Shown here: piece by piece, positions 2,837 to 25,858 of the stretch | How the letters are laid out: every line of letters starts with the position of its first letter | Numbering within the stretch: the stretch's first letter is position 1 | Virus record (IMG/VR): IMGVR_UViG_3300031951_000489 | Span: 1-38,534 of that record | Strand: one strand, 5' to 3' | Length of the DNA: 38,534 nt | Origin: a virus | Translations under genes and position numbers: made by a program | Notes under the pieces: generated by a model | Database searches by the model: none | What the model was told of the DNA's origin: nothing | The model's input: the letters and a program-made list of their open reading frames with translations, nothing else

Positions 2837-3024
2837 TGGCTACTCATTCAGAAATCGTGGAAACCAAACTTTCCTCCCATGAGCTTATTTGTGCGGAGCG
2901 TTATCGCGGTATAAACGCCCGTCTAAAGCGTATTGAGGTCATTGGCATCAGCGCCACCGCCGCATTGATCTCGGCTATGGCTTGGGTGATTAACCTGCTG
3001 ATCGGCCTAGTAGCGAAGCTGTGA
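2836..3024 (+). CDS. small single-TM protein, XhlA/holin-like
   Basis: A 62-residue protein with a charged N-terminal half (E-R-Y-R-x-I-N-A-R-L-K-R, residues 21-32) and one hydrophobic helix at about residues 36-60 ending in Lys. This soluble amphipathic helix plus C-terminal TM layout resembles XhlA-type haemolysin or holin accessory proteins. It overlaps genes on both sides (TAATG at the start, GTGA at the end). It lies far from the main lysis group at 11.4-13.3 kb and immediately before the acyl cassette, so it could instead be a membrane anchor for that cassette. Function is inferred from topology only. Confidence 0.5.
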   Translation: MATHSEIVETKLSSHELICAERYRGINARLKRIEVIGISATAALISAMAWVINLLIGLVAKL

Positions 3025-3362
3025 ACTTTGAGGCGCTAGCGCAAGTACGATTTGGCGACCCTGACGGGCTAAAAGAATTCTTGTTTGAAAACGGCATCCA
3101 GCACCAAGCCTTTGCCGAGCGCCTAATTGACCTTGGCTTTACGGTTCCGCGCTACCCGCTAATTGACGCTGACGTAGAAGACCTTGATGACTGGTTACAA
3201 ATTCACCAGATTGAGCATCAGGCGTTTGCTACGATCCTAGACCTTGACAACCCGTTTAATCTACTTGACACGGATTGGAACCAAGAAGATGATTTTTACG
3301 ATTGGATCAATACACACCTGTTGATCCATGAGCAGATAGCACGTGTTTTAGGTGTGACATAA
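3021..3362 (+). CDS. acidic three-repeat protein of unknown function
   Basis: A 113-residue acidic protein starting with GTG at 3021, which overlaps the TGA of the gene before it. Three repeats of roughly 35-40 residues are visible, each ending in a His-centred helix: 'IQHQAFAERL' near residue 26, 'IEHQAFATIL' near 67 and 'LIHEQIARVL' near 101. Each is preceded by an aromatic/Leu helix ('LKEFLFENG', 'LDDWLQIHQ', 'FYDWINTHL'). I recognise no family. The repeats suggest a small alpha-helical scaffold or binding protein. It lies 10 bases upstream of the ACP gene and may belong to that unit. Confidence 0.55.
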   Translation: MNFEALAQVRFGDPDGLKEFLFENGIQHQAFAERLIDLGFTVPRYPLIDADVEDLDDWLQIHQIEHQAFATILDLDNPFNLLDTDWNQEDDFYDWINTHLLIHEQIARVLGVT

Positions 3363-3372
3363 GGGGCTAAAT

Positions 3373-3654
3373 ATGGACTTTTTGCAACTGGTGCATGAGA
3401 TTGGCAAGGTCGCCAAACCGATGCACCAAGATACGCTTGAGCATCCCGACTGGGATACACCGTTTAACGAGCTAGGCTACGACAGCCTAGACTTGCTTCT
3501 GGTGGGTTTGTACATCTGTGACGTATACGGCATACCAGAAGAGGTCGGCAAGACCATGCAGGTCAAAAATTGCACCGATCTGAAGGCTTTTGTAGACCAG
3601 CACAAGACGATTGAGCCTGAGAGCCTAGAAGCTGCCTTGGCAAAGGTGGTTTGA
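3373..3654 (+). CDS. acyl carrier protein
   Basis: A 93-residue protein with the ACP signature 'LGYDSLDLLLVG': Ser38 is the expected 4'-phosphopantetheine site, close to Ser36 of E. coli AcpP. Helix II follows Ser38, and a downstream '(V/I)x.(C)TDL(K)AFV' resembles ACP helix IV. ACPs carry acyl chains as thioesters and need a phosphopantetheinyl transferase; none is seen here, so host AcpS would have to modify it. The start is preceded by the AAGGGGCTAAAT element that recurs in this genome. The ketosynthase ATG follows its TGA with no gap. Helix II is less acidic than usual, which may limit use by host enzymes. The family call is strong; the role is inferred. Confidence 0.85.
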   Translation: MDFLQLVHEIGKVAKPMHQDTLEHPDWDTPFNELGYDSLDLLLVGLYICDVYGIPEEVGKTMQVKNCTDLKAFVDQHKTIEPESLEAALAKVV

Positions 3655-4752
3655 ATGTATCTCAATGACTACGCAACGGCCTGTACAACCCAAATAACGG
3701 CCTTTGAGGACATTTTATTCCCTCAAAACTGTCATTTTTTCCCTGTTACATACGCCAAAAAAGACTCTGGGCTGGTCTATGCGCCACATCGGCTTGCCGA
3801 GATGGTTCTTACCCCCCAGAAAATTTCAAGGATTAGGGAAAACCCTAAGAAAAAGCAAGCCTTTATTCTTGCAGGAGGCAATCAACACTTTGCTGGCATC
3901 AATCCGCGAAAGATTAAGGATAATAGCCTGTCCTATGTGTATAAGTTTCTACCGTTTACGCTTACTCAGGTGTATGCAGGGCGTGTTGCTCAAAGCATGG
4001 GCATATCTGACTTGATCCAGACCGATGCTTCTGCCTGCGCCTCTAGCCTCAAGGTCATGTTTGATGTGCAGACCCTAATGAAGTACCACGGCTTTGACCG
4101 GGTGGTGGTTTTAGGGGTAGAAGACGCTGTATCTAATTCTGTGCTGGAGTTTTTTGGCGAGGCAAAGGCTGTTTTAAGCCTAGAAGAAGAGAAAAACGGG
4201 GTGCTGCCAAGCGCTTTTGACAGTAAAAACTACGGTTTTCGGGTCGGACAGGGTGTCGTCTTGGCTGTCTTTGAGTCAGAACCCCAAGAAAATACAATTG
4301 CTGCATTGCGTCATAGCTGGAACGCTTCAGAAGTCAGCACCAACGCCATAGGGCAGAACGCCGCAGGGCAGGGCTTTGCCAAGGCTATTGCTGGCTGCGT
4401 GGATCAAGGGCTAAACACTGAGGCGATCACGGTGGTCAAGACCCATGGCACGGGAACCAAAAGCAATAACGAGGCCGAAAAGGCTGCTTTGGCTGGCCTA
4501 AACAACCACTTTGTCGCCACTAGCTACAAGGCCCGAATAGGGCATACGATGGGTGCGTCAGGCTTGCTAGAAACCCTATTACTGTTGGAAAATATGCGGA
4601 ATGGGTTTGTGCCTGAAATACCCAACAGGACAGAAGATGACAAGGTGTACTTGTCTGCCCCTGTCCCGGCACCCAAGGGGCTAGTTTTAAGTTTAGCGGC
4701 AGGCATGGGTAACATCTATTCAGCAGCCGTGTTTGAGCCTATGGGGGCATGA
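3655..4752 (+). CDS. beta-ketoacyl-ACP synthase (KAS)-like thiolase-fold enzyme
   Basis: A 365-residue condensing-enzyme homologue. Visible motifs: nucleophile 'TDASACASS' with Cys128; 'KTHGTGTKSNNEAE' with His264; 'YKARIGHTMGASG' with Lys292 and His297. The Cys-His-Lys-His spacing (136, 28, 5) closely follows FabF/FabB (Cys163, His303, Lys335, His340 in E. coli FabF), so the Claisen-condensation centre looks intact. It is about 45 residues shorter than FabF, mostly before the Cys. The C-terminal GFGGxN loop is replaced by 'AAGMGNIYSAAVFEP'. The protein could extend an acyl chain on the adjacent ACP, or be a decarboxylase or chain-length-factor-like variant. AAAGGTGG inside the ACP end serves as SD, so both are probably made together. 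Confidence 0.85.
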   Translation: MYLNDYATACTTQITAFEDILFPQNCHFFPVTYAKKDSGLVYAPHRLAEMVLTPQKISRIRENPKKKQAFILAGGNQHFAGINPRKIKDNSLSYVYKFLPFTLTQVYAGRVAQSMGISDLIQTDASACASSLKVMFDVQTLMKYHGFDRVVVLGVEDAVSNSVLEFFGEAKAVLSLEEEKNGVLPSAFDSKNYGFRVGQGVVLAVFESEPQENTIAALRHSWNASEVSTNAIGQNAAGQGFAKAIAGCVDQGLNTEAITVVKTHGTGTKSNNEAEKAALAGLNNHFVATSYKARIGHTMGASGLLETLLLLENMRNGFVPEIPNRTEDDKVYLSAPVPAPKGLVLSLAAGMGNIYSAAVFEPMGA

Positions 4753-5201
4753 TGGCACGTTTAGTAGACAGCCAGCAGCAGGAACTAACAGTCGAGGAAA
4801 TACTCGACATTGCCAATTGGTCATCTGCTGAACCAATTGAGACTCCAAGATTTATCGCCATAATAAATACGGAGTTGCAGATGCCGAACACGCTGTTCAT
4901 TCGGCAGGGCAATACGCTATTTATTATACACAAGGCCGAACCCGGAGTCGGCTTCTTCCGTGCGCTAAACGCTGACACGGCTAGAAACTACCTTGCCAAC
5001 AGTGTCGAATTCATCAAAGCCTGTCACAAGATGGGGTTTGACACCATGGCTACACAATTTAGTGATCCGTCACTGCTAACCATTTTCCGGTTTATTTCGG
5101 AAAACCCGCCCTTGCCAAACATGGGTTACAAGGTGCAAAAGACTGAGGATGGGGGCTTTTACGTTGCCGTCAACACTGGGCGCGTGAAAGGAGGCAAATA
5201 A
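4749..5201 (+). CDS. GNAT-like protein (acyltransferase or T7 gp13-like internal virion protein)
   Basis: A 150-residue protein overlapping the KAS stop (ATGATGG at 4749; a second ATG at 4752 is possible). The layout is GNAT-like: strands 'NTLFIRQGNTLFIIHKA', a helix with 'YLANSVEFIKACHKMGF', then 'DPSLLTIFRFI' and a closing 'MGYKVQKTEDGGFYVAV' hairpin. This recalls the end of GNAT enzymes and of T7 gp13, which is also GNAT-like and precedes the internal core genes, as this one does. Two readings are open: an acyltransferase using the acyl-ACP made by its neighbours, or a structural gp13-like protein. A clear CoA-binding Q/RxxGxG/A loop is not seen, which weakens the enzymatic reading. Confidence 0.5.
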   Translation: MMARLVDSQQQELTVEEILDIANWSSAEPIETPRFIAIINTELQMPNTLFIRQGNTLFIIHKAEPGVGFFRALNADTARNYLANSVEFIKACHKMGFDTMATQFSDPSLLTIFRFISENPPLPNMGYKVQKTEDGGFYVAVNTGRVKGGK

Positions 5202-6580
5202 TGGCTGCTGTAGTCAATGCTGTTGTTGACGTTGTAGAGGACGTTGCTGAGTTTGTAGGCGATGCAGTTGAAGATGTGGTTGATGTTGTCGAGACAACCG
5301 TACAGGCTGTCGTTGAAAACCCAGAAATCCTGATTATTGCTGTCGCTGCACCACAGCTATTGCCCACAATTGGGATTACTGGTGCGGCTATTGCGCCGGT
5401 TACTGCTAGCTTGATTAGTGCTAGTCAGGGTGGCGACCTAGAAGATATTGGTAAAGCTGCCTTGACTGCTTACATTGTGCCGCAAGTTGCCCGTGGCGCA
5501 GCCGGTGCTGCCGCCAGTGCTGGTCTGCAAAACAATTTGGCTAATGCCGTAGGTGGTGCCGCAGGTGGTGCTACCGCAGCCGTGATACAAGGCGGTGATG
5601 TTGGCAAAGCTGCTCTGGCTAGCGCAATCTCATCCGGCGCTGGTGCAGAAATAAAAGAAAGATTGACTGGTCTTGGTGCTGCTGAAGATCAAACTGCAAT
5701 TGGTGCTGATCGAGGAATTTCACCCGCCACTGCCGAAACAATAGGCCGGGTGGCTGGAGCAACGCTTGGTGGTGCTGCTACCGGCAACGCTGAAGCCGCA
5801 GCTACTAGCGCACTTTTAGGTGAGCTTAATAGAGAACTACGCCGTCTGAACGAAAAAGAAGTAGATATTGGTTTTGGGCCGGGTAAGTTTACCCAAGACC
5901 TGACAGAAGCAGACGTAACTGGCATGTCCGATGAGGACTTTGATCGCATGATGAGTGCGATTGAAAGTGACTTGAGCGAGGCAGAGCGCGAGGAAATCCA
6001 AGCCTTTGGCCCGCAAGACTATAGCCTGACTGCTGGCTCTACCCGCCGTGAGGCAGAGGGCATGGGTGGCGCACAAGGTCTGCGTGGCAGACTTGGTGAC
6101 ATACGTGAACGCGAAGATGGCACGGTAGACTTTGAACGCATCTTTGAAGGTGAGTTTGGAGGTGAAGGGCTGCGTGTTCCGCGAGTACCCGGTTTAGAAG
6201 ACATGGGTGGTGGCACCGGCCTGACCGTACCGAAAGAAGGTGGCACGGTTACCGAGCGTGGCTTTGTACCTGAAGACGAAATCCTGCGCCAAATCCAAGA
6301 AGAGTTGTATCCAACACCGTCATTCGGTGGTGGCGAGGGTGAGGCTGAGGTTACCCGTCAACCGCTTGATACTGGAACCCTACAAGTTATGGGTAGTGGT
6401 ACTACGCGAGGTGTAGATTTTGCCCGTGGCGAAACACCCGGAATCTCTCCGCGTGTCACTGGTGAAGCTGCTGCTGGCATCCTTGGCGAGAAAGAACCGT
6501 TATTTGGTGGTGATGAAGATAAACAACGTGCGGTATGGAACCGTCGTTCACTGCGCCTAAGACGCGCGTTAGGATTCTAA
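5201..6580 (+). CDS. internal virion / DNA-ejection protein, Gly-Ala-rich
   Basis: A 459-residue protein. Residues 1-40 form a Val/Asp/Glu heptad-like helix (V-V-D-V-V-E-D-V pattern). Residues 40-170 are Ala/Gly/Ile-rich hydrophobic helices with glycine zippers ('AGAAASAG', 'GGAAGGAT') and a repeated 'G(D/K)..GKAAL' element. The last 300 residues are acidic and Gly-rich. Such membrane-active Gly/Ala helices next to other large virion genes are typical of podovirus ejection proteins, which leave the capsid and line a channel across the envelope. ATG overlaps the upstream stop (TAATG). Function is inferred from composition and position; no family is assigned. Confidence 0.55.
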   Translation: MAAVVNAVVDVVEDVAEFVGDAVEDVVDVVETTVQAVVENPEILIIAVAAPQLLPTIGITGAAIAPVTASLISASQGGDLEDIGKAALTAYIVPQVARGAAGAAASAGLQNNLANAVGGAAGGATAAVIQGGDVGKAALASAISSGAGAEIKERLTGLGAAEDQTAIGADRGISPATAETIGRVAGATLGGAATGNAEAAATSALLGELNRELRRLNEKEVDIGFGPGKFTQDLTEADVTGMSDEDFDRMMSAIESDLSEAEREEIQAFGPQDYSLTAGSTRREAEGMGGAQGLRGRLGDIREREDGTVDFERIFEGEFGGEGLRVPRVPGLEDMGGGTGLTVPKEGGTVTERGFVPEDEILRQIQEELYPTPSFGGGEGEAEVTRQPLDTGTLQVMGSGTTRGVDFARGETPGISPRVTGEAAAGILGEKEPLFGGDEDKQRAVWNRRSLRLRRALGF

Positions 6581-6581
6581 T

Positions 6582-7667
6582 ATGCCCGGAATTAAGCCTG
6601 TAGTTGGCATGGAAGGTATGGGTGGTGCCCGTGAGTTAGCAGAAATGCTGCGTCAGTTAGGGCGTGGCAGGGACACCGTACTGGCCCACATCACACCAGA
6701 AGAAGCCCAAATGCTGATGGATATGGGCGGCTCTGGCACAACCAACCCTGCTACTGGACTGCCTGAGTTTTTAGATATTTATGGCGGTGACGATACAGGG
6801 CAATTTCAATTTGACGAATCTACGATTCCAACGGTGGATACCACTTTTGATCTCGGTCAGGCCGTAGGTCAACAACAGGCCGCAGATACATTTTTTCAGC
6901 AGCCACAATACGGCGCTATGTCAGATATGGCAGTGCAAGAACCTTTCATGCCAAGTCGTGATGTTGAAGCACAGATGGGTGGCTTCTATGGTGGCGTTCC
7001 GTCACAGTCAGAATTAGCCAGAGCGCGTTTTGCACAAGAGCAAATGAATCAGCCTGCACCAACCGGGCTGGCCCGTGGCGCTCAGGCTGTAGAAAACACT
7101 GCACAACAGTTTCGTGATCTGGCTAGGCAATACCCAACGGTAGCCAAAATGCTATCGACTGGCGCTACTACGCTTCCTACGCTTATTAACGCTGTTCGTG
7201 CCCGCCGAGAAACCGAACAGGCTGCTCAACGGCTTAGACAATTAGGCGCACCCCTAAGAGAACAAGGTGAGGCTTTGCGTCAACAAGCTCTCGCTGGTCA
7301 GTTAAGCCCACAAGAAGCTGCTGCACAAGAGGCTGCAAGGGCTAGATTGCGTCAGGGTGCGGCTACCCGTGGAACCACTACTGGAACACAGGCTGCAATG
7401 ATTGAGAATCAGCTAGGCCGACAGCGGGCACAGTTAAGCGAAACAAAACTAACTAATGCGGTCAAGTTACTCAATCTTGGAAATGCTTATGACGAAGAGG
7501 CAATCCGGCTTGCATTGTCTGGAAACCAAAGAGTTAGAAATGCAGTGGCTAACATTTTTGCAAACCTTGGTCAACAAACCGCTAGCACGGCATCGCCACA
7601 GCAAGAGCAGCCAGTAGCGCAATCTGACCAAAGAATTACCCGCAGACCTGATACCCGGCAAGGATAA
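6582..7667 (+). CDS. internal virion protein, Gln/Ala-rich
   Basis: A 361-residue protein. The first 150 residues are Gly/Met/Gln-rich and low in predicted order. Residues about 155-310 are a long Ala/Gln/Arg helix with coiled-coil character ('RRETEQAAQRLRQLG', 'LSPQEAAAQEAARARLRQG', 'RQRAQLSETKLTNAVKLL'). The tail is Gln/Ser-rich. Gp14-like core proteins of podoviruses have similar composition and size class. The gene starts 1 base after the previous stop and ends 5 bases before the next start, so all four large genes here form one operon. The role in the inner core or ejection apparatus is inferred. Confidence 0.5.
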   Translation: MPGIKPVVGMEGMGGARELAEMLRQLGRGRDTVLAHITPEEAQMLMDMGGSGTTNPATGLPEFLDIYGGDDTGQFQFDESTIPTVDTTFDLGQAVGQQQAADTFFQQPQYGAMSDMAVQEPFMPSRDVEAQMGGFYGGVPSQSELARARFAQEQMNQPAPTGLARGAQAVENTAQQFRDLARQYPTVAKMLSTGATTLPTLINAVRARRETEQAAQRLRQLGAPLREQGEALRQQALAGQLSPQEAAAQEAARARLRQGAATRGTTTGTQAAMIENQLGRQRAQLSETKLTNAVKLLNLGNAYDEEAIRLALSGNQRVRNAVANIFANLGQQTASTASPQQEQPVAQSDQRITRRPDTRQG

Positions 7668-7672
7668 GGACT

Positions 7673-9175
7673 ATGAACGAAACCTTAACGTCCACAATCA
7701 ATAAGCCGATGACCGATCCTTTTGCATCGGTCAGATCAGCATTTACCCCGGCGTCAGCAGAGCAGCGGGCAGAATCAGCACGAAAGGCTGTCCCCGGTTT
7801 ATTTGAGGGGCAGCGGGTATCTGCCGCCAAAGAAGCAACGCTTCAGTCCGAAGCGCAAGCACAGCAAGAGGCAAAACAGATTGCAGCAGAAGAAGGCTTT
7901 TTGGCTGAAAAAGAAGGCGCATACAAGTATGAAAAGGAGTCAATGGCTCCGCGCCCTGAACCGCAGATCACCAAATTTGATCCTGCTGCTGCGGCAGAGC
8001 TTGCTGTAACGACTGCATTGCTTGGCTCAATTACCGGCATGGTGGGCGGTGAGTTAGCTCTTGGCGCTATGGAAGGATTTACCCGTGGTCACAAACAAGG
8101 CCGTGAAGACCTCTATAAGTCTGAGGTAGCCAAGTTTGAGCGTGATGTTGCTGCTTGGAAAGACCGCAACAAAATGATCCAAGACGAGGTAAAAAACATC
8201 GTTGATTTGGCTGCTACGCGCCGTGATGTGGCTAAAGTTAAAGCCAAACAATTGTCTGGTCAATTAAGAGATGGGTTACTAAAAGCCAAACTTGACATTG
8301 AAGATTACACTGGAGCATTAAAACTCATTGAGCCAATACAAAAACTAGAGGGTGACTTAATCAAGCAGGCTGCAAAGGCAACAGGCCGTCAGGCAGGGCA
8401 GCGTGAACAAATGTTTGCCACCCGTGTTTTTGGAAACATCGTCAACGCTGCACAAGACTTGGGCAACCTGATGATTTCTCCATCGGTTGCACAGTCGCCT
8501 GTTTTTGCTGGTTTAATCAACGTAGACCCAGAAACAGTCTTTGGAAGCCTGCGATCACTGGTTGCAAGAAATATAACCAACGCAGAAGAAAGAGCGTTTG
8601 ACCAAGTAGCCAATAGCCTTTCTGCCGCACTTGCTCGGATTGAAGCTCAGGGGTTGGCTTCCGGCTCAACCCAGAAAAACATTGCTGCATTTGACGCACT
8701 GCGACCAAGAGCAGGTGATAACGCTATTAACATGGCGCTATACCTAGCCCGTGTTAAACAAGAGATTGAGGCTGGCGTTACGGTCTTCAAAACCATGTCT
8801 GGCGCTACACCAGAACAAATTGCTTTGGCTGACCAAATTAACTCACGGATCAATCAGATTGTACCGTTCTCTGTAGATACAGTATTCCAAGTAATGAATC
8901 GTGGTGGCAAGACTTTAGATAACAAAATGCAGCAGTTGTTAAAACTTCCTAATACTGCAAGGCTTATCAATCCTAATCCGACTGACCTAATGAACTTGTC
9001 AAATAGGCCGCAGACAGGCGCACCCATTCCTGCTGCACCTGCTGCCGGTCAGCCTCCAGCAGCACCAAAAACAGCAACAATGGGCAATGTACGTGCCACA
9101 GCAACAAATAGACGGATTTCTGTAGATGAAGCTAAACAGCTATACATAGACCAAGGCTACACAATTAAGGAGTAA
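7673..9175 (+). CDS. internal virion protein
   Basis: A 500-residue protein with long charged helices: residues 20-90 are rich in Glu/Ala/Gln, and 140-230 in Lys/Asp/Glu. A short hydrophobic Ala/Leu/Gly segment (about 105-135, 'LAVTTALLGSITGMVGGEL') could insert into a membrane. The C-terminal region has a Pro/Ala linker ('IPAAPAAGQPPAAPK') followed by a small domain ending in 'DEAKQLYIDQGYTIKE'. A detachable C-terminal segment of this type is common in phage virion proteins. It is preceded by AAGGA and ends 3 bases before the next gene. I recognise no family; the ejection or core role comes from context. Confidence 0.5.
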   Translation: MNETLTSTINKPMTDPFASVRSAFTPASAEQRAESARKAVPGLFEGQRVSAAKEATLQSEAQAQQEAKQIAAEEGFLAEKEGAYKYEKESMAPRPEPQITKFDPAAAAELAVTTALLGSITGMVGGELALGAMEGFTRGHKQGREDLYKSEVAKFERDVAAWKDRNKMIQDEVKNIVDLAATRRDVAKVKAKQLSGQLRDGLLKAKLDIEDYTGALKLIEPIQKLEGDLIKQAAKATGRQAGQREQMFATRVFGNIVNAAQDLGNLMISPSVAQSPVFAGLINVDPETVFGSLRSLVARNITNAEERAFDQVANSLSAALARIEAQGLASGSTQKNIAAFDALRPRAGDNAINMALYLARVKQEIEAGVTVFKTMSGATPEQIALADQINSRINQIVPFSVDTVFQVMNRGGKTLDNKMQQLLKLPNTARLINPNPTDLMNLSNRPQTGAPIPAAPAAGQPPAAPKTATMGNVRATATNRRISVDEAKQLYIDQGYTIKE

Positions 9176-9178
9176 GAA

Positions 9179-10807
9179 ATGGACGAAGACTTGCTTGGTC
9201 AAGATGAAGACCTGTTAAAAGACTTACCGCAAGATTCTGCTGCCGAAAAGATAGTACGGGGCACGACTAGAACCCTTTTGCCTTTTGCCGAACCCAAAAA
9301 CGTACAGCGTTTTGCAAAAGAAGCGGTGACCAAGCCAAGTGACTTGTTCGATCTGCCGGTTTTGGCTAGAGGCGCTAGGTTATCTGGTGAGCGTATGGCT
9401 ACTGCCGTAGGGCAAATGATTCCGTCAACACGGGAAGCTGCCACCAAACGCGCTCAAGAAATTGAACAAGAATTAGAAGAAAGCGGCCCAAAACGGGCAG
9501 CAGCTACCATGACCGACATTTTTGGTCTTGGCAAGGTTCTAAGTCCATTATCCAAATTTGTGCAGTCTACTAGCGCAGCAGGCCGTATGGCCCGTGCTGG
9601 CGGTGTTGGAGCCGGAGCAACCGTTGCTACAACCCCGGTATTGGAAAACGCTGAAGAAAACTTTATTGGCGAAAAGCTCAAACAAGCCACATTGGGTGCC
9701 GCCTTTGGTGTTTTACCGCAGGCAGCAATGGAAGGTGCCAAAAAGTTTCTCTTTCCGGGTTCCCGCTACCAAGTCAACCCTGAGACTGGCAGGTTAATTG
9801 ATGAAGCCATGAAACGTGGCTACACCATCCCAATCTCTGAAATGACAGAAAATGCCGCGATCCGCACTCTTGACCGGCTATTTGATAGTCCCCTTGTGCA
9901 ACGCAACGCACCACTGTTTGCAAAGAGAATCAATCAAATTATGGGCAGCGCCGATGACACTATTGGCCCTGCATCAATGGCAAAAATTGACAGTACCCTG
10001 ACAAACACAATCCAAAGTCTTACAAAGAATCAAAAGGTAGACTTGAGTAAGTTAAGTGGCCCTGCTCAGACTTTGATTGACAGGACACTAAAGGGTATTC
10101 CTGACGTTGAGCCGGGCAGACTCCAGTCAATCCTTACATCCTTGCAAAAGTCAGTGCAGGGTGGCAAAACAACAATTGATGGCACGGTCTGGCACGACAC
10201 CAGAATGTTGCTCAATAAAGAGTATGCCCGCCTGCTAAATGCTGGTAGTCCTGATGCACAGACCATGCGTGGATTGATAAACGAATGGGATAATGCTGCT
10301 TTCAATTCTGCTACTAGCCCGCAATGGAAAGATCGGTTTATCGACTGGAAGAGCAAATACACGACATTTGCTGACGTAAGAGAAGCAGCCCTTAAAAACG
10401 AAACGGCACGGCAAAACTTCTTAAAAGGCGTCCTTGACCCAACCGACTTGATGAACACAATTGCTCAGAAGCGTCCTACCGAGTTTGTGCAGCGCACCTA
10501 TGCACCGCCTAGCGCTGCGCCCGGAGTCAAGGGTGGAAGAGAGCAGACCACTGAGGCGGCTGTTGCCGGTGGTTTGAATGTTTTTGGGAGGGCAGAAGGC
10601 CCGACAGCCGTGGCTCCATACTACCGTGCGCCCACCGCACCTAGAGTGCTGGCTACCCTATTAGGTGCCAAAGGATTGCAAGCTGGTTTATACACTCCTG
10701 CTGGTCAGAGATTGATTCTAGAGGGTATGACACCACAGCAGATGCAACAGTTTTATGGTTTAACAACCCCGTATTCCGTTGATTTAGCAAGGGCACTTGG
10801 TCAGTAA
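9179..10807 (+). CDS. internal virion protein
   Basis: A 542-residue protein, last of the four large virion genes. It has an acidic N-terminus with the repeat 'DEDLL', amphipathic helices, and a Gly/Ala zipper around residues 138-185 ('ARAGGVGAGATVATTPVL', 'LGAAFGVLPQAA'). The rest is mostly helical. The C-terminus, 'GMTPQQMQQFYGL', is Met/Gln-rich. The SD AAGGAG overlaps the end of the upstream gene. Composition and order suggest the largest ejection-type protein of the set. No lytic transglycosylase signature, as found in T7 gp16, could be seen, which leaves open how the peptidoglycan is opened at entry. Confidence 0.5.
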   Translation: MDEDLLGQDEDLLKDLPQDSAAEKIVRGTTRTLLPFAEPKNVQRFAKEAVTKPSDLFDLPVLARGARLSGERMATAVGQMIPSTREAATKRAQEIEQELEESGPKRAAATMTDIFGLGKVLSPLSKFVQSTSAAGRMARAGGVGAGATVATTPVLENAEENFIGEKLKQATLGAAFGVLPQAAMEGAKKFLFPGSRYQVNPETGRLIDEAMKRGYTIPISEMTENAAIRTLDRLFDSPLVQRNAPLFAKRINQIMGSADDTIGPASMAKIDSTLTNTIQSLTKNQKVDLSKLSGPAQTLIDRTLKGIPDVEPGRLQSILTSLQKSVQGGKTTIDGTVWHDTRMLLNKEYARLLNAGSPDAQTMRGLINEWDNAAFNSATSPQWKDRFIDWKSKYTTFADVREAALKNETARQNFLKGVLDPTDLMNTIAQKRPTEFVQRTYAPPSAAPGVKGGREQTTEAAVAGGLNVFGRAEGPTAVAPYYRAPTAPRVLATLLGAKGLQAGLYTPAGQRLILEGMTPQQMQQFYGLTTPYSVDLARALGQ

Positions 10808-13772: not shown

Positions 13773-13798
13773 CCCCCGGTTCGCCGGGGGTCTTTTTT
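13773..13798 (+). terminator. intrinsic terminator ending the rightward transcript
   Basis: Perfect 7-bp stem CCCCCGG (13773-13779) / CCGGGGG (13784-13790) closed by a TTCG loop, followed by TCTTTTTT. The UUCG tetraloop on a C-G pair is extra stable. The minus side has no T run, so it acts on the plus strand only. It separates the late genes from the converging minus-strand operon, whose last stop is at 13797-13799. Confidence 0.93.
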
Positions 13799-14621
13799 AA
13801 TCACCACAATAACAAGCAATAGATTCTTCTTCAGTAGCAAACATATCGCCTTGCGTCTGGGCAAAATTCATCATCCGTGCATAACTTGGACGATCCTTCC
13901 TGAATCTTGCTCCGTCACCTTGAAACTGACCTGAAGATTGAATTTTAGTTTCCATCTTTGCCCACCAAATAGCCCTATCAGGTTTTTCTTGGATAAGACT
14001 TAAAGTCTGTGGATAACCCTTTAAAAAACAAAGATCACAGTTTCCATGAAATGTCTTGCCATTGATATTAGGTAACTCAAGATCAAATGGTTGTGCTTTC
14101 CAGAAGGCTCCTACGTCCTTGGCGGTCACCCCATCCACAAATAGTGGAACCCTAGATTTATCTACTTTGGCGGCTCTGCGAGGTTCATCGGCCCTGATGC
14201 CAATCCAGTCTGAATTTTCATCATGCTCCCACCCTAAATCTTTTAGGTAACGGTTTAGGGTTCTAATCTTTAATTCAGCCGTACAGAATCTAGTTACAGG
14301 GTTTGGCAAGTACTTCTTATACTCAATGAGCATTTCAAATGGCTCACCGTTTCTACTTGCCGTATCAAAGTCTACGACTTTATAACGCTTTTCTCCATTC
14401 TGGTACTCAAGCCAAACGATAGGCACATTCCAATTTTCTTGGCAGGCTTTAACAAACCGCAAAGTAGCTTCGTCTTCTTTCCCAGTATTAGCAAAACAAA
14501 CTATGCCTTCTGACGGCAAACCGTTATTGCTTTGTAACACCCGCCATAACATATACCCAGAGGTGCGCCCACCAGAAAAACTGATAACAGTAGGTTCGGT
14601 TATCTTGAATGGATCAGTCAT
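13797..14621 (-). CDS. PAPS-reductase / PP-loop ATPase family protein
   Basis: A 274-residue protein with the PP-loop 'SFSGGRTSGYM' (SGGRTSG at residues 16-22), which binds ATP/adenylyl groups, then 'RFCTAELKIR' (Cys113) and two Cys pairs, 'CDLC' (195/198) and 'CYC' (270/272), that may hold metal or a cluster. Phage members of this family are labelled phosphoadenosine phosphosulfate reductase. Sulfate reduction is unlikely in a phage; thiolation or modification of nucleic acid or metabolites is more plausible, but not shown. It is the last gene of the leftward operon and overlaps the upstream gene by 4 bases (ATGA). Confidence 0.75.
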   Translation of the reverse strand: MTDPFKITEPTVISFSGGRTSGYMLWRVLQSNNGLPSEGIVCFANTGKEDEATLRFVKACQENWNVPIVWLEYQNGEKRYKVVDFDTASRNGEPFEMLIEYKKYLPNPVTRFCTAELKIRTLNRYLKDLGWEHDENSDWIGIRADEPRRAAKVDKSRVPLFVDGVTAKDVGAFWKAQPFDLELPNINGKTFHGNCDLCFLKGYPQTLSLIQEKPDRAIWWAKMETKIQSSGQFQGDGARFRKDRPSYARMMNFAQTQGDMFATEEESIACYCGD

Positions 14622-22154: not shown

Positions 22155-22796
22155 TTAGGCTACTGACTGCAATCTGACGGGGGTTTTCAATTCTTGGGAA
22201 AACTTGGGCGCAGGCATAGGGGAAATGTCACCCCGTAACGGCATGACTACGGCTAGAAAATTGTCGCAGCACAGAACCCCCGCATTTGCACCCCTCGGAC
22301 GGATACCGATTGAAGGGGGAGTTTTACCCGTCATTTCGGCATAGATTGAAAAGCCTTTGATCGCGTCAGATACATAGTCGGGGTTGAAAATGCAGGATTC
22401 AGGCGCACCCCCGTCATGCGCTGGAATGATGCGCCGATAGTCGGGAAATTTGCCATCAAGGGCAAATTGGACGATTTCTGATCCGTCAGGCAATCGGGCG
22501 CAGATTTTCCCTTGATCGTAGGTCACTAGAATCTTCGGGCATTTGTCAGCTTTGCTAGCCTTTGCCGTCAGGCATTTTTTCACCATGTCGGCGGGCATGA
22601 TGAAAGTCACGGGTTCAACTACCGGCCCGCTTTCCTCTTGGATCACCATATGTAGGCGATGTCCGTCAGTAGCTATTAGGCGGGTCTCTGCCCCGTTTGC
22701 TTCAATGTAGACCCCCTGCAAGTAGTAACGGATGTCTTTTACTGCCATCGCTAACGAAACGGCCCGCAGGTCTTTTTGATTGATGTCAAAGTGCAT
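22155..22796 (-). CDS. truncated beta sliding clamp (DnaN-like)
   Basis: A 213-residue protein. 'DIRYYLQGVYIE' and 'RLIATDGHRL' (43-48) and 'LDGKFPDYRRIIP' (114-122) match the second domain of DnaN. 'LAVVMPLRG' (183-188) matches its C-terminal end. Compared with E. coli DnaN (366 residues) it lacks domain 1 and roughly the first half of domain 3, and it adds a short tail. Clamps tether DNA polymerase and other proteins to DNA. This one might replace, cap or poison the host clamp. AAAAGGGG precedes the start, and the DnaA-box region lies about 0.8 kb downstream. Confidence 0.8.
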   Translation of the reverse strand: MHFDINQKDLRAVSLAMAVKDIRYYLQGVYIEANGAETRLIATDGHRLHMVIQEESGPVVEPVTFIMPADMVKKCLTAKASKADKCPKILVTYDQGKICARLPDGSEIVQFALDGKFPDYRRIIPAHDGGAPESCIFNPDYVSDAIKGFSIYAEMTGKTPPSIGIRPRGANAGVLCCDNFLAVVMPLRGDISPMPAPKFSQELKTPVRLQSVA

Positions 22797-24561: not shown

Positions 24562-24757
24562 TGTCAATAAAACTGCTGAGGCGTGGTTTAAGCAGGCGCA
24601 ACATGTAGGCCGGGAGTACTTTATTAGGGCAATGAAGTCGCATAGAGAAGAGATGGCGAATGGTGGCACCTATTCAGGCATACACGCAGAAACTTATAAA
24701 CTAATGTCTAGACACCCTTGGGGACAGGAGTATTTGAAAATTGAGTCACTTAAATAA
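24542..24757 (+). CDS. small protein of unknown function
   Basis: A 71-residue protein with a helix 'HVGREYFIRAMKSHREEM' and 'GTYSGIHAETYKLMSRHPWGQEYL'. No motif that I recognise. It overlaps the ORF before it and the methyltransferase start after it (TTG 24741). Confidence 0.5.
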   Translation: MTVRGIDVNKTAEAWFKQAQHVGREYFIRAMKSHREEMANGGTYSGIHAETYKLMSRHPWGQEYLKIESLK

Positions 24758-25307
24758 AGTCTTGCCTCAGATTGCCCCACACTGCATCGACATGTGGGAA
24801 CACTTCCCGACGCTTAGGGACTTAGCCTCCCAATGCACCTCTGTGGTTGAGATGGGGGTAAGAGGTGGCTGCTCTGCCTATGCCTTGGCTGCTGGTTTAG
24901 AGATCAGCACCGCTAAAGACAGGTGGATGCTCTACCTAGACATCAATGCCTGCCAAAACCCTAAGCTAGAAGAATTGGCTAAGGCTGCTGGAATTAAGAT
25001 TGAGTTTCAACAGACCGATAGCCGGTATGTAGAACTGCCTGAGTGTAGTCTGCTTTTTATCGACACTCTGCATACCTATGGGCAGCTAAAAACTGAGTTA
25101 GACCTTCACCACACCAAAGCCCGTGATTTTATTGTCATGCACGACACCGATGCCCCTTGGGGATATAAGAATGAGGTCGATGACGGTAGTCCTGATCGTG
25201 GGCTATGGCCTGCCATAGAAGAATTCTTAGATGAGCATAAGTCAGACTGGTCGCTACTAAAGCGCTACCGTAATTGCCATGGGCTAACCATACTGGCTAG
25301 GAAATAA
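24741..25307 (+). CDS. SAM-dependent methyltransferase (class I, Methyltransf_24-like)
   Basis: A 188-residue protein starting with TTG behind ACAGGAG. 'SVVEMGVRGGCSAYALAAG' is the SAM-binding glycine motif (about residues 34-52), 'MLYLDIN' is the acidic strand that binds the ribose, and 'LLFIDTLHTYGQLKTELDL' with 'IVMHDTD' fit Methyltransf_24 enzymes. The substrate may be a sugar, a small molecule or a surface glycan. It is followed without a gap by a second methyltransferase. Confidence 0.75.
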   Translation: MSHLNKVLPQIAPHCIDMWEHFPTLRDLASQCTSVVEMGVRGGCSAYALAAGLEISTAKDRWMLYLDINACQNPKLEELAKAAGIKIEFQQTDSRYVELPECSLLFIDTLHTYGQLKTELDLHHTKARDFIVMHDTDAPWGYKNEVDDGSPDRGLWPAIEEFLDEHKSDWSLLKRYRNCHGLTILARK

Positions 25308-25858
25308 TGCACCCCTCAGCCATGCAAAACTGCATTAGGTTTTTTGATACCTATGGCAAACACAAAGAGTCTGGGCTGGTAATTGATATTGGTAGCCAAA
25401 ACGTCAATGGCAGTCTTAAAGACGCTACCCCTGCCCGCTTTAATTATGTTGGCCTAGACTTCCAAAAAGCTGACGGGGTGGATGTGATCATTACTGACCC
25501 GTATAACCTACCCTACGCAGACAAGTCTGTAGACATTGTGCTGTCATCATCCTGCCTTGAACACTCAGAGTTTTTCTGGCTTTCATTTTTAGAGATGGTT
25601 AGGGTAGTCAAACCCGATGGTCTAATCTACTTGAACATTCCCTCTGCCGGTCAATACCATCCCTACCCTGTTGACTGCTGGCGTTTTAGGATTGATGCGG
25701 CTGTAGCCTTTATGAAGTGGGCGCAGCGGCAGGGCTATAACCCGGCCTTACTGGAAGCCTATACCGATGCTGCACCGCCATGGCATGACTTGGTGTGTAT
25801 CTATGCGGGTGACATGAAGTTTGTGGAGCATTACCCGGATAGGATTGACCTGCCATGA
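25307..25858 (+). CDS. SAM-dependent methyltransferase (Methyltransf_11-like)
   Basis: A 183-residue protein coupled to the one before (TAATG) and to the terminase (ATGA). 'LVIDIGSQNVNGSL' is motif I, 'YVGLDFQKADGVDVI' the acidic loop, and 'DPYNLPYADKSVDIVLSSSCLEHSEFFW' with 'VRVVKPDGLIYLNIPS' are motifs IV-VI of class I enzymes. It probably methylates a glycan or metabolite. The adjacent pair might act in series. Confidence 0.8.
   Translation: MHPSAMQNCIRFFDTYGKHKESGLVIDIGSQNVNGSLKDATPARFNYVGLDFQKADGVDVIITDPYNLPYADKSVDIVLSSSCLEHSEFFWLSFLEMVRVVKPDGLIYLNIPSAGQYHPYPVDCWRFRIDAAVAFMKWAQRQGYNPALLEAYTDAAPPWHDLVCIYAGDMKFVEHYPDRIDLP

What the first reader, a model, noticed from the sequence alone, without database searches (positions are those of the whole stretch)
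3373..5201. Acyl-carrier protein, ketosynthase and GNAT-like gene as one unit in the virion block
Seen: an ACP with Ser38 in LGYDSLD, a ketosynthase with Cys128, His264, Lys292 and His297, and a GNAT-like gene, with the last two joined by overlap and no gap between the first two. Known: ACP and KAS together extend acyl chains, and GNAT-fold or other acyltransferases can use acyl-ACP. Inferred: the phage may make a specific acyl group that ends on a virion or host protein or lipid. The position among tail and ejection genes favours a virion target. I do not know how widespread this set is in phages, so novelty is not claimed.
Basis: partly seen in the sequence, partly recalled or inferred. Interest (0 to 1): 0.87.

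Follow-up and report, generated by a model that had tools for sequence, protein, structure and literature searches.

The report
Phage cassette that may lipidate ejection protein
Hundreds of uncultured water phages carry a carrier protein, a fatty-acid-extending enzyme and a transferase-fold protein, nearly always as neighbours just before a protein thought to be injected into the host cell, which suggests, without proving it, that these viruses attach a fatty chain to their own DNA-delivery protein.

Summary
In detail: an ACP (Ser38), a complete FabF-type ketosynthase (Cys128, His264, Lys292, His297) and a GNAT-fold protein lie in one tight unit (3373-5201). AlphaFold plus Foldseek confirm the GNAT fold, which sequence searches miss. 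Catalytic residues are invariant in 152 ketosynthases, and the ACP Asp-Ser-x-Asp motif in 157 ACPs. Viral contigs yield over 500 ketosynthase relatives; a motif scan of 84,980 species genomes found none. Every ketosynthase with readable upstream DNA has the ACP, and 172 of 173 have the GNAT gene next. The reverse does not hold: 27 of 190 GNAT genes lack a neighbouring ketosynthase. One such phage has ACP-ketosynthase elsewhere in its genome. The gene after the GNAT gene, in the position of phage ejection genes, starts M-Gly or M-Ser in 167 of 179 cases (background 17%), with about 22 Gly/Ser switches on the tree. The window's own protein has Ala2, one of 8 such cases. T7 gp13, in the same position, is also predicted to be a GNAT. 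Best reading: a virus-encoded acyl-ACP pathway in which the GNAT acylates the first ejection protein, perhaps at its N-terminus. Chemistry and target are inferred, not shown.

The parts
3373..3654 (+). acyl carrier protein, 93 aa; phosphopantetheine site Ser38 in DSLD
   Evidence: PF00550 E 8e-4; PDB profile hits are ACPs; D37-S38-x-D40 invariant in 157 homologues
3655..4752 (+). beta-ketoacyl-ACP synthase of FabF type, 365 aa; Cys128-His264-His297 with Lys292
   Evidence: PF02801/PF00109; FabF TIGR03150 2e-24, far below its cut-off; phrog_35856 8e-34; aligned with solved FabF; catalytic residues invariant in 152 homologues
4749..5201 (+). GNAT-fold protein, 150 aa, without the canonical CoA P-loop; putative acyltransferase
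   Evidence: AlphaFold pLDDT 93 and Foldseek to GNATs; invariant S8, E42, G54, N55, N74, D76, F104 in 183 homologues; P-loop motif near beta4-alpha3 in only 3 of 183
5201..6580 (+). putative first ejection protein and proposed acyl acceptor; amphipathic N-terminal helix then hydrophobic stretch (residue 2 is Ala here)
   Evidence: follows the GNAT gene; residue 2 Gly/Ser in 167 of 179 relatives; amphipathic residues 1-36 and hydrophobic residues from 41
6582..10807 (+). three further genes of the putative ejection-protein block (6582, 7673, 9179)
   Evidence: position; the same block in MW202545 ends with an annotated transglycosylase SLT protein

Best explanation
The phage carries its own acyl-ACP pathway for acylating a virion protein. 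Inferred steps: host AcpS loads the phage ACP at Ser38; the phage ketosynthase extends a host acyl chain with malonyl-ACP, host reductases completing the cycle or leaving a 3-oxo chain, which fixes the kind of acyl group on the phage ACP; the GNAT-fold protein transfers this acyl group to the membrane-active ejection protein encoded next, most likely on its N-terminal Gly or Ser (Ala here) after Met removal. The lipid would help that protein insert into, or cross, the host envelope during DNA delivery, or help it assemble inside the head. Shown: gene identities, catalytic residues, predicted GNAT fold, tight co-inheritance, and constraint on residue 2. Inferred: every chemical step and the acceptor.
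For: Catalytic residues of ketosynthase and ACP invariant. ACP present before all 171 evaluable ketosynthases, GNAT gene after 172 of 173, across ketosynthases down to 55% and GNATs down to 36% identity and with differing upstream genes. Where ACP-ketosynthase has moved away from the GNAT gene it is still in the same genome in one phage (L038/G016). GNAT fold with invariant polar residues and no CoA P-loop; a LuxI-type AHL synthase, a fold that takes acyl groups from acyl-ACP, is among the structural matches. The next protein has Gly/Ser at residue 2 in 167 of 179, with about 22 Gly/Ser switches among about 29 changes in all, against 2% Gly and 15% Ser elsewhere in these contigs; where the ATGA overlap forces codon 2 to begin with A, 24 of 25 are Ser. 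Precedents: HlyC uses acyl-ACP (PMC8339906), CdiC lipidates a contact-delivered effector (PMC8510554), GNATs lipidate the N-termini of lanthipeptides (PMC13060382).
Against: No activity or modification has been observed. The GNAT gene lacks a neighbouring ACP-ketosynthase in 27 of 190 distinct cases, yet there too the next protein keeps Gly/Ser at residue 2, so that constraint does not depend on ACP-ketosynthase being adjacent. The window's own protein has Ala2. ACP-ketosynthase sits beside replication-side genes in two phages, which would also suit a metabolic role. The closest structural matches of the GNAT are acetyltransferases. The near-invariant His61 is missing in some phages that do carry ACP-ketosynthase.
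Confidence: 0.45

Rival explanations
1. ACP-ketosynthase is an auxiliary metabolic pair that changes host fatty-acid or membrane composition; the GNAT-fold protein is an unrelated structural or assembly protein that happens to be the neighbour.
For: In L136/L368 and G016 the pair sits beside replication-side genes. GNAT genes exist without a neighbouring pair. T7 gp13, in the same position, is called a probable scaffold.
Against: 172 of 173 evaluable ketosynthases are directly followed by the GNAT gene and never stand without the ACP. No ketoreductase-type SDR and no PPTase was found in the window.
Confidence: 0.25
2. The GNAT N-acetylates the N-terminus of the ejection protein with acetyl-CoA, as RimI does, and ACP-ketosynthase is a later addition with another job.
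For: Structural matches include N-terminal acetyltransferases RimI and Ard1. Gly/Ser/Ala at residue 2 fits the NatA-type range (general knowledge). The constraint holds in phages without a neighbouring ACP-ketosynthase.
Against: The canonical CoA pyrophosphate loop is missing in 180 of 183 sequences. It does not explain the tight linkage to ACP-ketosynthase.
Confidence: 0.15
3. Residue 2 is constrained only as the cap of the amphipathic N-terminal helix of the ejection protein, with no modification.
For: An amphipathic helix starts right there; Ser and Gly are common helix caps (general knowledge).
Against: Asp, Asn and Thr, equally good caps, are practically absent, even where codon 2 must begin with A and so Asn and Thr are allowed (24 of 25 Ser). 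It leaves the GNAT and ACP-ketosynthase linkage unexplained.
Confidence: 0.15

Closest known systems
RTX toxin-activating acyltransferases HlyC/CyaC and CdiC
   Same: Acyltransferase gene beside the gene of the membrane-acting acceptor; acyl-ACP as donor (PMC8339906, PMC8510554).
   Different: Those use the host ACP and no dedicated ketosynthase; the acceptor is an internal Lys; no sequence match to the HlyC family was found here.
Goadvionin, lipolanthine and selidamide lipopeptides
   Same: A GNAT attaches an acyl chain, in some cases polyketide-made, to a ribosomal peptide, at the N-terminus in several (PMC13060382, PMC9505594).
   Different: Bacterial natural products made with larger gene sets; here a phage with one ketosynthase, one ACP and a large virion-type protein.
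T7 gp13 (PF11090) and the SIO1/Cobavirus GNAT pc40
   Same: GNAT-fold protein next to the internal virion (ejection) proteins; gp13 fold predicted here; pc40 likened to gp13 in PMC6775973.
   Different: No ACP or ketosynthase described with them; no detectable sequence homology to gp13; T7-like gp14 starts Met-Cys, not Met-Gly/Ser.
Cellular FabF (KAS II)
   Same: Same catalytic residues and fold family.
   Different: Shorter N-terminal part; FabF's C-terminal GFGGTN gate region reads AGMGN, invariant in all 152 (the FabF motif is from general knowledge); scores far below the FabF equivalog cut-off.
Eukaryotic N-myristoylation of viral capsid proteins, e.g. picornavirus VP4 (general knowledge)
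   Same: GNAT-fold transferase acylates an N-terminal Gly of a virus protein that helps the genome cross a membrane.
   Different: There the enzyme is the host's and uses acyl-CoA; here enzyme and carrier are the virus's own. Analogy only.

Membership tests
Beta-ketoacyl-ACP synthase (thiolase fold) | Cys-His-His triad and conserved Lys | tested here: met
   invariant in 152 of 152, aligned with FabF
Beta-ketoacyl-ACP synthase (thiolase fold) | decarboxylative condensation activity | not testable with these tools
   needs an assay
FabF (TIGR03150 equivalog) | score above the curated cut-off (493.75 bits) | tested here: not met
   85.8 bits: FabF-like, not FabF
Acyl carrier protein (PF00550) | score above the Pfam cut-off | tested here: inconclusive
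   20.1 against 20.8 bits for the window protein; 8 of 15 members match at E up to 0.1
Acyl carrier protein (PF00550) | phosphopantetheine Ser in a D-S-L motif | tested here: met
   D37, S38 and D40 invariant in 157 (Leu39 is Met in 11)
GNAT superfamily | GNAT fold | tested here: met
   predicted structure, pLDDT 93; Foldseek to GNATs from E 7e-5, TM up to 0.59
GNAT superfamily | CoA pyrophosphate P-loop Q/R-x-x-G-x-G/A | tested here: not met
   3 of 183 near beta4-alpha3; GNAT-like fold, not a canonical CoA-type GNAT
HlyC/TAAT family | sequence match to the HlyC family | tested here: not met
   no HlyC Pfam hit for any of 15 members
T7 gp13 family PF11090 | sequence homology | tested here: not met
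   hhalign probability 0.1%, with shallow profiles
T7 gp13 family PF11090 | GNAT fold and place just before the ejection genes | tested here: met
   works-like argument only

The most novel reading that the evidence does not exclude
A virus-encoded equivalent of N-myristoylation in bacteria: phages that make their own acyl-ACP and use a GNAT-fold transferase to lipidate the N-terminal Gly/Ser of a DNA-ejection protein, with T7 gp13-gp14 as a distant parallel in which the GNAT-fold gp13 would act on an invariant N-terminal Cys.
Probability: 0.25. Interest if true: 0.92.

Novelty: new variant of a known kind. Interest (0 to 1): 0.74.

Why it matters
If right, a common group of uncultured phages lipidates its own genome-delivery machinery with a self-made acyl donor, a virion modification that my literature searches did not turn up for phages. 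It would also give a testable function to the GNAT-fold proteins that sit before the ejection proteins in T7-like and other short-tailed phages, where the role of gp13 has remained a guess (assembly or scaffold).

Tried and rejected
Sequence searches for the GNAT gene in Pfam, PHROGs, NCBIfam and the PDB gave nothing usable, so structure was used. Direct homology to T7 gp13 and P22 gp14 by profile comparison: none. Cellular relatives of the ketosynthase subfamily: none found with the motif scan, which needs exact conserved motifs. The FabF-like hits in Listeria and Enterococcus phage records and three human-gut phage records (24-27% identity, unannotated) look like ordinary bacterial FabF or contamination and were set aside unchecked. 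Loss of His61 as a marker for loss of ACP-ketosynthase was considered after and dropped, because His61 is 92-93% in both groups. A phage PPTase or ketoreductase was sought and not found in the window. Ketosynthase elsewhere in records whose GNAT lacks a neighbouring one: found in 1 of 25 records; the others are mostly fragments. Papers on phage ACP-ketosynthase: none that describe this set among the titles and abstracts returned.

Full report
WHAT IS THERE. The window is a 38,534-base virus record from IMG/VR with a short-tailed-phage-like gene set: SU10-type portal and adaptor, terminase, and a block of large genes after the tail region. The ACP matches PF00550 just below its cut-off; its family profile finds almost only ACPs in the PDB. 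The ketosynthase matches both Pfam ketosynthase domains and aligns with solved FabF enzymes over its catalytic part. The third gene has no sequence match, but its AlphaFold model (pLDDT 93) has the GNAT order of elements, and nearly all of the best PDB matches are GNATs; a LuxI-type AHL synthase (TofI) is among the rest.

HOW GENERAL IT IS. Among 50,697 phage records only one, the metagenomic genome MW202545, has the set. IMG/VR has at least 533 stretches that encode ketosynthase relatives and 288 that encode GNAT relatives. In the loci fetched, after removal of identical proteins, the ACP precedes all 171 ketosynthases with readable upstream DNA, and the GNAT gene follows 172 of 173. These loci are the best matches to a few queries and near-copies remain, so the numbers describe this clade and are not independent events. 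The catalytic Cys, His, Lys and His are invariant in 152 ketosynthases, and Asp-Ser-x-Asp in 157 ACPs. A motif scan of 84,980 species genomes found no relative; it sees close relatives only.

ASYMMETRY. The ketosynthase is almost never without the GNAT, but 27 of 190 distinct GNAT genes have no ketosynthase next to them. On the GNAT tree this needs four changes. One of these phages (record of L038) carries ACP-ketosynthase elsewhere, beside a helicase-like gene. In a second phage (L136/L368) the pair stands beside a nuclease-like gene and no GNAT is seen in the 13.9-kb fragment. The pair can therefore move, and it accompanies a GNAT that may be the older part.

THE NEXT GENE. The gene directly after the GNAT gene encodes a protein with an amphipathic, acidic N-terminal helix and then a hydrophobic stretch, at the place of the first ejection protein; in MW202545 the block ends with an annotated transglycosylase. 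That it is an ejection protein rests on position, not on a family match. Its residue 2 is Ser in 96, Gly in 71 and Ala in 8 of 179 distinct cases, residue 3 is mostly Ala and residue 4 is Val in 163. In other ATG-started genes of the same contigs Gly is 2% and Ser 15% at residue 2, while Ala (31%) and Thr (17%) lead. The tree needs about 22 Gly/Ser switches out of about 29 changes in all, so the pair Gly/Ser is kept although the residue itself keeps changing; Gly and Ser codons (GGY, AGY) are one transition apart, which eases the switch, but Asn, Asp, Thr, Cys and Val are as close to one or the other and are not seen. Where the ATGA overlap forces codon 2 to begin with A, 24 of 25 are Ser, although Thr, Asn and others would be possible. 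The window's own protein has Ala2. The constraint also holds in phages without a neighbouring ACP-ketosynthase, so it ties residue 2 to the GNAT, or to the ejection protein itself, rather than to the pair.

THE T7 PARALLEL. In T7 the gene before the ejection proteins is gp13. Its model (pLDDT 93.5) is also a GNAT, with only GNAT-type enzymes in the list of best matches. Sequence profiles do not link the two families, and homology is not claimed. [quoted passage not shown] T7-like gp14 begins Met-Cys in all 29 loci read, again a constrained small residue 2 right after a GNAT-fold gene. P22 gp14 holds the corresponding place but its fold was not tested.

MECHANISM. The simplest reading that uses all parts is an acyl-ACP-dependent protein acylation: carrier, chain-setting condensing enzyme, GNAT transferase and acceptor in one ordered block. 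The lack of the CoA P-loop in 180 of 183 GNAT sequences is compatible with an ACP-borne donor, and equally with a non-enzymatic role; seven invariant residues, five of them polar (S8, E42, N55, N74, D76), argue for an active site. The phage would depend on the host for AcpS, malonyl units and reductases. Everything after gene identity and linkage is inference.

VERDICT. Known kinds that it resembles are HlyC/CdiC-type acyl-ACP-dependent acylation and GNAT lipidation of ribosomal peptides; a phage version aimed at a virion protein is, as far as the searched papers show, new.

Noticed in passing
L260-L288 (gene after T7 gp13): T7-like gp14 proteins start with Met-Cys in 29 of 29 loci, including the most divergent; Cys at residue 2 was absent among 344 background genes of the window's relatives.
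   Followed up: partly
L436:1698-3082 and L136:4714-6107: ACP-ketosynthase pairs relocated next to helicase-like or nuclease-like genes, away from the virion block.
   Followed up: partly
L001:19998-21098 (MW202545): The deposited ketosynthase CDS starts about 50 codons downstream of the start suggested by homology, and the ACP is annotated only as hypothetical.
   Followed up: partly
22155-22796 (-): Gene with a DNA polymerase III beta-clamp domain (PF02767, 1.3e-10), a phage-borne sliding clamp.
   Followed up: no
24741-25858 (+): Two adjacent methyltransferase-like genes directly before the terminase gene.
   Followed up: no
3021-3362 (+): Small conserved gene with repeated EHQAFA-like helical segments just before the ACP in several relatives; no family match.
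   Followed up: no
13797-14621 (-): PAPS-reductase-like gene (PF01507, just above cut-off).
   Followed up: no
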